In this document: positions 46,569 to 50,542 of the stretch, piece by piece
Position numbering within the stretch: the first letter of the stretch is position 1
Layout of the letters: each line of letters begins with the position of its first letter
NCBI GenBank assembly: GCA_036504445.1
Contig: DASXVE010000019.1
Location: 1-64,000 of the forward strand
Length of the DNA stretch: 64,000 nucleotides
From: Candidatus Aquicultor sp.
Lineage (GTDB): Bacteria > Actinomycetota > Aquicultoria > Aquicultorales > Aquicultoraceae
Direction of reading: 5' to 3'
Translations under genes and position numbers: made by a program
The notes under the pieces: generated by a model
Seen by the model: only the letters and a program-made list of their open reading frames with translations
Database searches by the model: none
What the model was told of the DNA's origin: nothing

Positions 46569-47699
46569 ATGAAACGTTTTTCGGCCACTCTGACCTGCCT
46601 TCTGTCAATCTTTTTACTTTCGATATTGCTCTCAGCGTGTGAAAAAGCAAATAATAACTCCTCAGCAAAGTCATTAACCGTAAACGTGGTACTTCCCAGA
46701 ACGATATTTGTGGGTGATTATCAGGCACGTTGCACTCCAAGAAAAATCACGTATCTCAAAACGCTCCCTCTTCTTACTGCGAAAACCGAGCAATTTTCTG
46801 AAAAAGAGGTCATCGGGTGGTTTAAGCCGAGCAGTATTACGACATCACAAGCAGTATCAACTGATGTAAGCTGGTCGTTTAGCAGAAACTTATACGGCCT
46901 CTATGTAGCAAACCAGATAGCCGCCGACGCGGGACAAAAGGCTTGGGACTTGCAGGGCGAAGAAACGGGCACGCTGGTTATCAGACAAGTTCCTGATAAT
47001 TTCCTCACGCCGAATATCTCTTTCTCTAACCCAACGGAGTATCATTCATACGGTCTAATACCGAAAGGACCTGAACCACAGCCAAAGGTCATATTTGTTA
47101 GGGAGTCGATATCTGAGACGGAAGCTATTGTGAAAGCCGATGCGTATATAAACGCGCACGGAGGCATGCCGGCAGACGCCGTTCGACACGCTGTATCAAT
47201 CGAAAGCGGTGTTATAGTTAAGGAACAGGGTAAGCGGGTTTATCCTATCAACAGCATATATGGATACTCGGTCAGCTATAGCCAGCGCTACCAGGGTATT
47301 CCTGTTTATCTCGACAGTATCGCGGTAACCCTTGATGAGGTGGGCGTTACCAGCTATTCTCGCACGTGGCACAAATTCGAAGCTATAAGCCCGCCAAAAC
47401 CCATTATTAACCCACGAAAAGCAGTTGATGCAGCTGTGAAATATCTTACGCCAGGCATCAACTCCCGTGAAGGTATCGTGGTAAGCCGAGTACAACTACG
47501 GTACTATAACTCGCAATCGCTCGAGTTTCCATGGCGCTCCAGCGTTCCGAAGAATGAGCTGAGCCCATACTGGTATATTCGCGTCAATAACCATGACGTG
47601 CGCGTTAACGCTTTAACCGGTAATATCGTTGAGCCTAATCTCGGTTCTAACGCGGAATCGGACGCAACTGTAAAGAAGGTCGATATACATCAACCCTAA
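46569..47699 (+). CDS. Lipoprotein of unknown function
   Basis: 376 residues with a signal peptide and lipobox LLSAC. The middle and C-terminus show alternating strands with YGYSVSYSQRYQGIPVYLDSI and later WYIRVNNHDVRVNALTGNIV, a repeated PepSY/YycI-like flavour, but I cannot name a domain. It is preceded by a good AAGGAG box. It is on the plus strand, convergent with speB-like. Confidence 0.65.
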   Translation: MKRFSATLTCLLSIFLLSILLSACEKANNNSSAKSLTVNVVLPRTIFVGDYQARCTPRKITYLKTLPLLTAKTEQFSEKEVIGWFKPSSITTSQAVSTDVSWSFSRNLYGLYVANQIAADAGQKAWDLQGEETGTLVIRQVPDNFLTPNISFSNPTEYHSYGLIPKGPEPQPKVIFVRESISETEAIVKADAYINAHGGMPADAVRHAVSIESGVIVKEQGKRVYPINSIYGYSVSYSQRYQGIPVYLDSIAVTLDEVGVTSYSRTWHKFEAISPPKPIINPRKAVDAAVKYLTPGINSREGIVVSRVQLRYYNSQSLEFPWRSSVPKNELSPYWYIRVNNHDVRVNALTGNIVEPNLGSNAESDATVKKVDIHQP

Positions 47700-47767: not shown

Positions 47768-48682
47768 TTACTCAATAATCTCAATTTCGGGACCGGTGTA
47801 TCCGCGAATCTTATCTCTGAAGCAGTATCCGATTAGTTTATAGATAAGCTTTGCAGCAAAGAAGTCGCTCGCAGGGTTTCCAGAAATCGGTGCAAGCTCT
47901 ACCACGTCAAATCCGACGACCTTTTTATGGAATGTTATCTCGTCGATTATTCTAAGCAGCTCATACCAGGTAATCCCGCCCGGTTCCGGTGTGCCTACCG
48001 CCGGAACCTCCGACGGATCGAAAACGTCCATGTCGATTGTTATGTACACGGTATCGCCCAGGGCGTCAACAATGTCTTCAACGCCGTAATAGCCAAACTT
48101 GTACTGCGGGGCGGATACAGAAAATATATTTTTCTCTTTTATAAATGCGGCTTCCTCCGCACTACTGTTGCGTACGCCAAGTTGGGCGAAACTAATTCCC
48201 TCGTCGTAAATGCGCCGCATAACGCAAGCGTGACTATATTTTGTTTCCTCGTAGGTATCACGGAGGTCGGTGTGGGCGTCTAGCTGCAGCACGGTAATAT
48301 CAGGATAACGCTCGCGTAACGCCTGCACGGCTCCGAGCGTGATCGAGTGCTCTCCCCCGATCATTACCGGAAATTTATTTCCCTCGACAACGTTAAGAAC
48401 AGCCTGTTTAACATCCTTGATCTGTTCTTTCGGCCCTGCCATGTTGGGTAAAAGCTCGTTCATCGTGTGTATGCCGACTTTTTTGTAGATTTCGGTCTCG
48501 AACTCCATATCGTAGAGCTCAACCTGACGAGAGGCATTGATTATAGCGAGTGGGCCTTCCCTTGTCCCCGCTTTATACGTTGTGGTTGCGTCATACGGCA
48601 CGGGCACTATGACGACATCCGCCTCATCAAATGAGCTGTTTTCATCTATTCCAAGAAAATTAAAGGGTAACGACGCGTACAT
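47768..48682 (-). CDS. speB: Agmatinase (ureohydrolase family)
   Basis: 304 residues. The Mn-binding motifs of ureohydrolases are intact: GGEHSITLG, QLDAHTDLRD and ITIDMDVFDPSEVPAVGTPEPGG. It hydrolyses agmatine to putrescine and urea; arginase or another guanidine hydrolase is possible. It lies downstream of the DHS-like and SpeD-like genes on the same strand, separated by a hairpin. A GGAGG box precedes the ATG at 48682. Confidence 0.9.
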   Translation of the reverse strand: MYASLPFNFLGIDENSSFDEADVVIVPVPYDATTTYKAGTREGPLAIINASRQVELYDMEFETEIYKKVGIHTMNELLPNMAGPKEQIKDVKQAVLNVVEGNKFPVMIGGEHSITLGAVQALRERYPDITVLQLDAHTDLRDTYEETKYSHACVMRRIYDEGISFAQLGVRNSSAEEAAFIKEKNIFSVSAPQYKFGYYGVEDIVDALGDTVYITIDMDVFDPSEVPAVGTPEPGGITWYELLRIIDEITFHKKVVGFDVVELAPISGNPASDFFAAKLIYKLIGYCFRDKIRGYTGPEIEIIE

Positions 48683-48860
48683 CCATACCTCCGGAAATAT
48701 TATTGCATGCCAGAACAGGCATAGTATTATCTACCACATTAATTGTAAGTGTTAAGCGTTGTTTTGCAAGCCAAAGATAGGCTTGGCAGCATATTGCACG
48801 ACGATCGGATGCATTTAGACGGCAGGAGCCGCATGAGAAATGTTACCACTGGAAATGGGT

Positions 48861-48895
48861 TCTCCCCGCCTTCGAAATTTCGAAGAACGGGGAGA
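48861..48895. repeat. Hairpin between speD-like and speB
   Basis: TCTCCCCG (48861-48868) pairs with CGGGGAGA (48888-48895). Inside is the perfect palindrome TTCGAAATTTCGAA (48871-48884). There is no T-run on the minus strand, so termination is not clear; it may be a processing or attenuation site. Confidence 0.5.
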
Positions 48896-48939
48896 TTAAT
48901 TGAGTAACATAAAATCCGCCTTGTGTCGGTTTACATTTC

Positions 48940-49290
48940 TTAGAACCGAGGAATGTGCTTAGCTTCTACATCCTCTTTCTTGATACCGAGCTGCCTGCAA
49001 ATCGATTCGAGTATCTTATCGCAACTCGTAGCTCCACAGGTAAACACATCAAGGGCCATCTTGCCGTCATCGGCATAGGTATGCACGGAAACATGGCTCT
49101 CGTCGAGCATGATAAATGCCGTGCAACCCGGCGATGAGTTGTGTCCAAAATGGTACCTGGACTGGTTAATGATGTTCGCACCAACTTCATTCGCCGCGTT
49201 AACGATGGTCTGAAGTAGCTTCTTGTCGTCCACAAGCAGGTCAAACGCCTGGTTGTGGACGTCCACAATTAAGTGATTACCCTTGTTCAT
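48940..49290 (-). CDS. SpeD-family pyruvoyl decarboxylase (AdoMet or arginine/ornithine)
   Basis: 116 residues, the short prokaryotic class. The self-cleavage site E64-S65 in DESHVSVHTY, H70 and C85 (FTCG) are intact, so a pyruvoyl enzyme is expected. However, residues that contact AdoMet in characterised enzymes differ: the HTWPE or HSFPE motif is HTYAD, the FxPxGVSG loop is FGHNSSPG, and GYAAVD is GKMALD. This argues against simple AdoMet decarboxylation and for a neofunctionalised arginine or ornithine decarboxylase, as reported for some SpeD homologues. It overlaps the DHS-like gene by four bases (ATGA). Confidence 0.82.
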   Translation of the reverse strand: MNKGNHLIVDVHNQAFDLLVDDKKLLQTIVNAANEVGANIINQSRYHFGHNSSPGCTAFIMLDESHVSVHTYADDGKMALDVFTCGATSCDKILESICRQLGIKKEDVEAKHIPRF

Positions 49291-50330
49291 CTCTCAATCC
49301 TTTCTAGTTGATTTCCAACCCAACTAAAGTTTCTTTTCCTATTGAAATCCTTATTGGATTGCATAAACGCACCTATAATGAGCGGCAATCCGATAGTCGC
49401 ATCTAAGTACACGGTTGCAATTTGGGCATCTTTGGTTATCTTGCCCCAAGATTGCGCTTCCTCGAAAGTGCAACCGCTTAGACCACCCCATTTCGGATCA
49501 TCCGTAGTAATTTGTATGGCATATTTGTGGCCGGGGATCTTTCGATAGCCCATTGTGTCAAGCATTGGCTCAAGCTGTTGAATATAATTCTTGGGCACGC
49601 CGCCTCCAACGTAAATTGCCCCTGTTTCCTCGGCCTTTAGTTTAATCTGAGCGATCTCATAGTTGTCTCGTATCTGGTCGATAATAAGATTTCCCGGACC
49701 TCTCCCGTTGTTCTCGCTCTGTGCGTACAGGTGTGTAAGTGCGATACCGATCGCACTGTCGCACAACGCCGGACAAAACGCAGGAACATCTTCCTCATAG
49801 GCAGCTCGAAGGATTGAGTTCGGATCTTCGATCCTTGAGCCGAGATATGCTAGAAACTCGCGCGACGAATACGCACGGGGCTCCAGCTCAGAAGCCATGT
49901 CTGCTATAGCAAACTCGACGCTCTCAAAATCGTCATTGCTGATATATGTATCGTAAATGCGATCGATTTTGAGGCCCTCTAGAACTCCATCGTTTGCGTG
50001 GGAGGATCCGATATAATGATGGAAGCCCAGCGCTTCGATGATGTCATGCGTTAGGTTCGCGCCTGTTGAAACAAGCGCATCGATCATGTGGTTCTTAATC
50101 ATGTCCCTGACGACTTTTCGTAAGCCCCCAGGAACAATAGCACCAGCTATGCCGAGGAATATTGTAGCCTTTTCGTCCTTAACCATTGTGTCAAGCACGT
50201 TTCTTGCTTTAGCAAGATTGCGGCTCTGATACGATGTCGCTTCGAATCCCCGAAGTAGCTGGTCTAATCCTTCGATCTTACTCAGATCGAGGTGCTGTAT
50301 AGGGTGTTTTAATAAATCCCTTTTTTCCAA
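49287..50330 (-). CDS. Deoxyhypusine synthase-like (homospermidine synthase?)
   Basis: 347 residues from a TTG preceded by AGGAGG. Family features: STGANLTHD, GGGVPKN with the imine-forming Lys at 247, and a C-terminal segment ending in SWGKI. Bacteria lack eIF5A, so hypusine is not its product; bacterial homologues are known to act as homospermidine synthases or similar NAD-dependent aminobutyl transferases. It is the first gene of an operon with speD-like and speB, under a good promoter at 50514-50542. No spermidine synthase is adjacent. Confidence 0.85.
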   Translation of the reverse strand: MEKRDLLKHPIQHLDLSKIEGLDQLLRGFEATSYQSRNLAKARNVLDTMVKDEKATIFLGIAGAIVPGGLRKVVRDMIKNHMIDALVSTGANLTHDIIEALGFHHYIGSSHANDGVLEGLKIDRIYDTYISNDDFESVEFAIADMASELEPRAYSSREFLAYLGSRIEDPNSILRAAYEEDVPAFCPALCDSAIGIALTHLYAQSENNGRGPGNLIIDQIRDNYEIAQIKLKAEETGAIYVGGGVPKNYIQQLEPMLDTMGYRKIPGHKYAIQITTDDPKWGGLSGCTFEEAQSWGKITKDAQIATVYLDATIGLPLIIGAFMQSNKDFNRKRNFSWVGNQLERIER

Positions 50331-50513
50331 CTGACCTCCTAGAAGGGCCTGACCTTTTTGAACCCAACCAATCTATAATAACGCTAAATATTTTTTTCCT
50401 CAATATATTTTTTAGCTAAACGAGCAGCTGCATAACAAAAGCCTGCCCTAATTCTCGAGAATTATCGCGACATTATCGATTAATTAGTGCAAGCTCATTA
50501 AACAAACAATATT

Positions 50514-50542
50514 AGGATAGTGATATTGTGTTCGGTAGTCAA
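50514..50542 (-). promoter_or_regulatory. Promoter of the polyamine operon
   Basis: TTGACT (50537-50542), exactly 17 bases, TATCCT (50514-50519). The predicted transcript has a leader of about 175 bases before the DHS-like gene, containing the palindrome AATTCTCGAGAATT (50450-50463). Confidence 0.65.

What the first reader, a model, noticed from the sequence alone, without database searches (positions are those of the whole stretch)
47768..50542. Self-contained polyamine operon without spermidine synthase
One promoter, then a DHS-like gene, a SpeD-like gene overlapping it by ATGA, and an agmatinase downstream. Classical spermidine synthesis needs AdoMet decarboxylase plus SpeE; no SpeE is beside it. 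A DHS-like homospermidine synthase needs only putrescine and NAD. If the SpeD homologue makes agmatine, the three enzymes run arginine to agmatine to putrescine to homospermidine. Bacterial DHS-like homospermidine synthases and SpeD homologues with arginine/ornithine decarboxylase activity are established; their combination in one operon here is inferred.
Basis: partly seen in the sequence, partly recalled or inferred. Interest (0 to 1): 0.72.

Follow-up and report, generated by a model that had tools for sequence, protein, structure and literature searches.

The report
Arginine-to-homospermidine gene cluster (known type)
Three neighbouring bacterial genes look like a route that turns arginine into the polyamine homospermidine without spermidine synthase; this gene combination was already published in 2023, so the cluster is a new member of a known kind, although the order of its last two chemical steps is still open.

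Summary
The three genes are real: DHS-like 49287-50330, SpeD-like 48940-49290 (4-nt ATGA overlap), agmatinase 47768-48682, all minus strand. The speDA-speY-speB combination is already described and its SpeD enzymes assayed as arginine decarboxylases (Li et al. 2023, PMC10407285), including from an actinobacterium. The SpeD here fits that class. It keeps the three catalytic residues, lacks the AdoMetDC proline and the ODC signature, and the genome has no recognised PLP or PvlArgDC-type decarboxylase for arginine or ornithine. Its only SpeE-like protein is a membrane fusion with altered catalytic aspartates; three near-complete sister genomes have none. In the DHS clade to which the window enzyme belongs, 15 of 15 loci outside the window's family carry agmatine genes beside DHS (13 PvlArgDC), so SpeD sits where an arginine decarboxylase belongs. 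Corrections: speB is not clearly under the same promoter (a hairpin conserved in 8 of 8 genomes follows speD). The genome has a second, distant DHS homologue, and a sister genus keeps only that one, with speY reduced to a pseudogene. Whether DHS couples putrescine, or couples agmatine first as Thermus caldomycin synthase does, is undecided. New member of a known kind; moderate interest.

The parts
49287..50330 (-). speY / DHS-like gene, 347 aa, TTG start
   Evidence: PF01916 E 2.7e-99; catalytic Lys297, Glu291, Trp295, Asp191 conserved; the same TTG start in all 7 family members compared
48940..49290 (-). speD-like gene, 116 aa, probable arginine decarboxylase (speDA type)
   Evidence: PF02675; Ser65/His70/Cys85 align with T. 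maritima Ser63/His68/Cys83, and Ala73 stands where AdoMetDC has Pro
49287..49290 (-). ATGA overlap of speY stop and speD start (translational coupling inferred)
   Evidence: 4-nt overlap also in L047, L048, L049, L050, L052, L053
48861..48895 (-). hairpin directly after speD, a terminator or attenuator in relatives; the T-run is missing in the window copy
   Evidence: fold z -5.2; 10 pairs, 100% of cells paired in 8 genomes, 3 pairs with changes on both sides
47768..48682 (-). speB, agmatinase / ureohydrolase, 304 aa
   Evidence: TIGR01230 260.2 bits, cut-off 174.3; best solved relatives are agmatine ureohydrolase 3pzl and putative agmatinase 3lhl, manganese-ligand motifs present; the only arginase-family gene in the genome
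48726..48755 (-). candidate promoter of speB (TTAACA-N18-GATAAT)
   Evidence: not more than chance by count; TATAAT boxes before speB in several relatives
50375..50403 (-). proximal promoter of speY-speD (TTGAGG-N17-TATTAT)
   Evidence: the only match in 64 kb, 0.04 expected; conserved in relatives, also before the decayed speY of genus g2
50441..50494 (-). leader hairpin followed by TTTTGTT, probably the terminator of the rluD unit or an attenuator
   Evidence: sequence conserved; z -3.0, -3.7 and -4.1 in three of four genomes tested, not in L049
   Evidence: same spacing in L047, L048 and L051 (alignment)

Best explanation
A homospermidine pathway from arginine that bypasses AdoMet and SpeE. 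The SpeD homologue cuts itself to form a pyruvoyl group and decarboxylates arginine to agmatine; the ureohydrolase SpeB removes urea; the NAD-dependent DHS-like enzyme joins two C4 units into homospermidine through its conserved lysine. speY and speD are translationally coupled; speB is probably a partly separate transcription unit. Shown here: gene content, conserved residues, absence of the alternatives searched for, conserved linkage. Inferred from characterised relatives: the activities. Undecided: whether SpeB acts before DHS (agmatine to putrescine to homospermidine, my first choice) or after it (agmatine to caldomycin to homospermidine).
For: SpeD: catalytic triad kept and AdoMetDC Pro lost. 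The SpeDs of the other classes of the phylum that sit next to a GGGDG-type SpeE all keep that Pro. No second SpeD, no OKR_DC fold, no PvlArgDC and no agmatine deiminase; the only alanine-racemase-fold decarboxylase is LysA. The SpeE-like protein has 7 hydrophobic segments, T and E in place of catalytic aspartates, and three relatives have no PF01564 protein. One arginase-family gene, this speB. DHS: catalytic residues intact. In the clade with H95, 15 of 15 loci outside the family have PvlArgDC, SpeB or SpeD beside DHS, against 5 of 64 in the Q95 clades. A SpeD with the same HTYAD motif, 44% identical, overlaps a DHS gene in a Hydrogenedentes genome. Published speDA-speY-speB clusters with assayed arginine decarboxylases: PMC10407285.
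Against: No activity was measured for this organism. The DHS in published speDA clusters was not assayed in that paper. The window DHS falls below the curated cut-offs of every NCBIfam DHS model, so its substrate is not fixed by family. speB is separated by a conserved hairpin. A second DHS homologue could be the real homospermidine synthase in this genome. The linkage statistic is largely one clade and so few independent events.
Confidence: 0.8

Rival explanations
1. Same end product, different order: the DHS-like enzyme joins two agmatines into 1,9-bis(guanidino)-5-azanonane (caldomycin) and SpeB then removes both guanidino groups to give homospermidine, as CdmS and TtSpeBap do in Thermus thermophilus. 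(A variant of the best explanation, not exclusive of its statement.)
For: The route exists (PMC10981699). In the H95 DHS clade the arginine decarboxylase is linked to DHS more often (13 PvlArgDC plus 1 SpeD of 15) than SpeB is (10 of 15), and five loci show ADC-DHS without adjacent SpeB. In the window speY-speD overlap while speB is set apart. Asp243 and Asp316 of human DHS are replaced by hydrophobic Ile196 and Leu284, as in CdmS (Phe, Leu).
Against: The CdmS residue proposed to bind guanidine, Ser67, aligns with Pro67 here. The NF002699 model scores 320 against a cut-off of 500. The hydrophobic pair also occurs in cyanobacterial DHS homologues, so it does not discriminate. Adjacency is weak evidence for substrate.
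Confidence: 0.3
2. The SpeD homologue is a true AdoMet decarboxylase feeding a spermidine synthase elsewhere in the genome.
For: It passes the TIGR03330 AdoMetDC cut-off narrowly (80.2 against 75.65), and one PF01564 protein exists in the genome.
Against: That protein is a membrane fusion with GLGTG for GGGDG and SEPSYP for VDSSDP. Three sister genomes have SpeD and no PF01564 at all. The AdoMetDC-specific proline is missing.
Confidence: 0.05
3. The SpeD homologue is an ornithine decarboxylase (speDC type), so agmatinase is not part of the route.
For: SpeDC enzymes also occur in clusters without SpeE (PMC10407285).
Against: An agmatinase is linked and is the only arginase-family gene. The Thr and Phe of SpeDC-like second copies (ETS...GHF, L060, L170, L171) are Glu64 and Thr71 in the window.
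Confidence: 0.04
4. The distant DHS paralogue at G000:C24:89217-90131 is the working homospermidine synthase, and the window DHS is being replaced or has taken another role.
For: Genus g2 has lost the window-type DHS (pseudogene remnants with stops), keeps speD-speB, and has only the paralogue.
Against: In the window genome DHS1 is intact, and its dN to relatives is below that of the neighbours rluD and lgt.
Confidence: 0.15

Closest known systems
speDA-speY-speB clusters (Li et al. 2023, J Biol Chem, PMC10407285; Solirubrobacter sp., Capsulimonas, Marinimicrobia, Woesearchaeota, Poseidonales)
   Same: Same three gene families in a cluster, no SpeE, no canonical ADC or ODC; even a deep-subsurface actinobacterial example with assayed arginine decarboxylase activity.
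   Different: This organism itself was not assayed. Here speB is set apart by a conserved hairpin, and a second DHS homologue exists in the genome.
CdmS / TtSpeBap caldomycin route of Thermus thermophilus (PMC10981699)
   Same: DHS homologue plus SpeB-type ureohydrolase downstream of arginine decarboxylation, ending in homospermidine.
   Different: The window DHS is in another subfamily (NF002699 cut-off not met) and has Pro67 where CdmS has Ser67.
SpeY homospermidine synthase of cyanobacteria (Anabaena; Burnat 2018, cited in PMC9992855)
   Same: DHS-family, catalytic Lys, homospermidine from agmatine-derived putrescine.
   Different: About 40% identical to Nostoc/Trichormus plasmid homologues, of which the one tested passes NF002699; the pocket position is Gln there, His95 here.
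PvlArgDC - DHS - SpeB modules (Deltaproteobacteria, Omnitrophica, Aminicenantes and others, found here)
   Same: Closest relatives of the window DHS, same logic: pyruvoyl arginine decarboxylase plus DHS plus SpeB.
   Different: The decarboxylase is the unrelated PvlArgDC family; in the window family and one Saganbacterium a SpeD homologue takes that slot.

Membership tests
SpeDA (AdoMetDC-derived arginine decarboxylase) | AdoMet_dc family, class 1b size | tested here: met
   PF02675 E 2.4e-22, 116 aa
SpeDA (AdoMetDC-derived arginine decarboxylase) | Self-processing and catalytic Ser63/His68/Cys83 of T. maritima numbering | tested here: met
   Ser65, His70, Cys85; invariant in 8 family members
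SpeDA (AdoMetDC-derived arginine decarboxylase) | Loss of the Pro that all true AdoMetDCs keep | tested here: met
   HTYADDG against HTWPE/HTYPE in the other SpeDs of the phylum. That this is the Pro marked in Fig. 8 of PMC10407285 is inferred
SpeDA (AdoMetDC-derived arginine decarboxylase) | Lacks the SpeDC (ODC) diagnostic residues | tested here: met
   Compared with SpeDC-like copies in L060, L010, L170, L171; exact figure positions were not readable
SpeDA (AdoMetDC-derived arginine decarboxylase) | No functional SpeE and no canonical ADC/ODC in the genome | tested here: met
SpeDA (AdoMetDC-derived arginine decarboxylase) | Arginine decarboxylase activity, no AdoMetDC activity | not testable with these tools
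   needs purified protein
SpeY (DHS-like homospermidine synthase) | DHS fold family with catalytic Lys329 and NAD-site Asp238 of human numbering | tested here: met
   Lys297, Asp191; PF01916
SpeY (DHS-like homospermidine synthase) | Organism has no eIF5A to modify | not tested
SpeY (DHS-like homospermidine synthase) | Homospermidine from two putrescines | not testable with these tools
   needs enzyme assay
CdmS (caldomycin synthase) | NF002699 equivalog score over cut-off 500 | tested here: not met
   319.8 bits; but Sphingomonas DHS beside a PLP decarboxylase gene passes (564), so the model does not fix substrate
CdmS (caldomycin synthase) | Ser67 and Glu293 proposed to bind guanidine | tested here: not met
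   Glu291 present, Ser67 replaced by Pro67 (register from the human alignment and the CdmS start given by the primer in PMC10981699)
CdmS (caldomycin synthase) | Agmatine homocoupling | not testable with these tools
   needs enzyme assay
Agmatinase SpeB (TIGR01230) | Equivalog cut-off and manganese ligands | tested here: met
   260.2 against 174.3; GGEHS, DAHTD, DMDVFDP motifs
SpeD/SpeE spermidine pathway | SpeE with GGGDG and catalytic VDSSDP aspartates | tested here: not met
   Only TM-fused homologues with altered motifs in the family

The most novel reading that the evidence does not exclude
The DHS-like enzyme of this clade (His95/Pro67 type, linked to pyruvoyl arginine decarboxylases in bacteria and Asgard archaea) couples agmatine, not putrescine, so that published speDA-speY-speB clusters run arginine to agmatine to caldomycin to homospermidine and putrescine is not an intermediate.
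Probability: 0.3. Interest if true: 0.55.

Novelty: new member of a known kind. Interest (0 to 1): 0.38.

Why it matters
It adds a whole family of Actinomycetota to the organisms expected to make homospermidine from arginine without AdoMet or PLP at these steps. The comparative data show that a SpeD homologue and the unrelated PvlArgDC fill the same slot beside one DHS clade. They also make a specific open point testable: which substrate the DHS of these clusters uses. The sister genus, with a decayed speY and a distant DHS paralogue, is a natural replacement experiment.

Tried and rejected
Spermidine pathway with SpeE elsewhere: rejected on SpeE active-site loss and absence in relatives. Alternative agmatine use by agmatine deiminase: none in five family genomes tested. 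RNA families at the locus: none. Reading substrate from the DHS positions Asp243/Asp316: dropped, because cyanobacterial DHS homologues and CdmS share the hydrophobic pair. Faster decay of the window DHS: dropped, its dN excess is no larger than that of neighbouring genes. Viral contigs: no relatives of the window DHS or SpeD, two lone relatives of the paralogue. Structure prediction was not run, since the fold was not in doubt.

Full report
What is there. Three minus-strand genes: a DHS-family gene (49287-50330, TTG start), a SpeD-family gene (48940-49290) overlapping it by ATGA, and an agmatinase (47768-48682). The 4-nt overlap is present in six further genomes of the same family, and the TTG start in all seven compared. 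The order rluD - speY - speD - speB is kept in the relatives whose contigs reach that far (one has a diacylglycerol kinase gene inserted after rluD). dN values for speD and speY are lower than for rluD and lgt, so both are under strong purifying selection.

Which organism. The window lies in a 2.57 Mb, 100% complete genome whose phylum also holds 8-9 Mb single-contig genomes. From the phylum content and Li et al.'s deep-subsurface actinobacterial example I take it to be a lineage of Actinomycetota; this is an inference, and no tool named the family.

Is the SpeD an arginine decarboxylase? Li et al. 2023 (PMC10407285) searched for SpeD without SpeE and assayed the proteins; those in clusters with speB and speY, including one from 'Solirubrobacter sp.', decarboxylated arginine only. 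The window SpeD keeps the residues of self-processing and catalysis (Ser65, His70, Cys85) and has Ala73 where the SpeDs of the other classes of the phylum have Pro. Many of those Pro-bearing SpeDs sit beside a GGGDG-type SpeE. It lacks the Thr and Phe seen in SpeDC-like second copies. The genome has no other SpeD, no OKR_DC-fold decarboxylase, no PvlArgDC, and one alanine-racemase-fold decarboxylase that is LysA (488 bits). The only PF01564 protein is a 582-aa membrane fusion whose catalytic aspartates are replaced; G084, G106 and G192 have none.

The strongest new evidence is comparative. A scan of named genomes with a DHS alignment returned 80 loci. On the tree the window DHS belongs to a clade (support 0.98) with Pro67, His95 and Cys287. 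In all 15 members outside the window's family the DHS gene has agmatine genes beside it: PvlArgDC in 13 (nine checked by Pfam), SpeB in 10, SpeD in one. In the Gln95 clades only 5 of 64 have PvlArgDC and none SpeB. A SpeD of the window's HTYAD type, 44% identical, overlaps another His95-type DHS, only 32% identical to the window's, in a Hydrogenedentes genome. So SpeD stands in the place of a pyruvoyl arginine decarboxylase. Caution: clade membership, signature and linkage are inherited together, so these are few independent events.

Which substrate does DHS use? Thermus CdmS joins two agmatines and a SpeB-type enzyme then makes homospermidine (PMC10981699). Two sequence tests speak mildly against a CdmS copy here (Pro67 for Ser67; NF002699 score 320 against 500). 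But that model also covers a Sphingomonas DHS placed beside a PLP decarboxylase gene of the ODC type, so its name does not fix the substrate. Gene linkage (ADC tighter to DHS than SpeB) speaks mildly for agmatine coupling. I leave it at about 2:1 for putrescine.

Transcription. The leader carries two conserved promoter-like sites with a hairpin and T-run between them. After speD a 10-bp hairpin is kept in all eight genomes with three compensated pairs. In most relatives a T-run follows it, and in several a TATAAT box precedes speB. The window copy lacks the T-run. 'One promoter' is therefore unproven and in the relatives unlikely.

A second DHS. The genome has a 324-aa DHS homologue on contig C24, about 24% identical, with Lys, Trp and Glu of the active site kept. 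In the sister genus g2 only this type is present; in G020 and G049 speD and speB remain, but between the promoter and speD lie decayed pieces of the window-type DHS with stops (E 8e-11 and 7e-8, against a best of 0.002 in 100 shuffled queries). The paralogue can thus apparently replace the window-type enzyme, and 'self-contained' is too strong.

Verdict. New member of a known kind.

Noticed in passing
G000:C24:89217-90131 (L076:6203-7177): Second, distant DHS homologue (324 aa), 6 bp upstream of a SpoIIE-type phosphatase gene; 83-85% identical copies are the only DHS in genus g2.
   Followed up: partly
L051:6392-7143 and L054:5453-6076: Remnants of the window-type DHS gene with in-frame stops between the conserved promoter and speD in genus g2: gene loss caught in place.
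   Followed up: yes
L084, L114, L117, L132, L133, L139, L141, L146, L151, L153, L156, L157, L160: PvlArgDC - DHS (- SpeB) modules in Wukongarchaeum, Zixibacteria, Deltaproteobacteria, Aminicenantes, Omnitrophica, Poribacteria and WOR-3; five lack an adjacent SpeB.
   Followed up: partly
L108, L121, L122, L123, L143: PvlArgDC directly upstream of a Gln95-type DHS in Thermoplasmatota, without SpeB.
   Followed up: no
L158:7542-9885: SpeD - DHS - SpeB trio in a Saganbacteria MAG; this SpeD keeps a Pro (HTFPD) and is only 22% identical to the window SpeD, possibly an independent recruitment.
   Followed up: no
[quoted passage not shown]
   Followed up: partly
L001:1192-2940 and L188-L197: Membrane-fused SpeE-like proteins with altered catalytic motifs (GLGTG, SEPSYP or LDAYNS); function unknown.
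   Followed up: partly
window 48861-48895: Conserved hairpin after speD whose T-run is lost in the window and in L048, possibly a change from terminator to read-through.
   Followed up: partly
L010:1896-2294, L060:1556-2542, L170, L171: SpeD copies with QLIETS...GHF instead of ESH...HT, SpeDC-like by the published signature; the L010 and L060 copies sit beside a Pro-bearing SpeD.
   Followed up: no
window 46569-47699: Lipoprotein-like gene with a weak YycI match next to speB, absent at this position in several relatives and apparently duplicated in L051.
   Followed up: no
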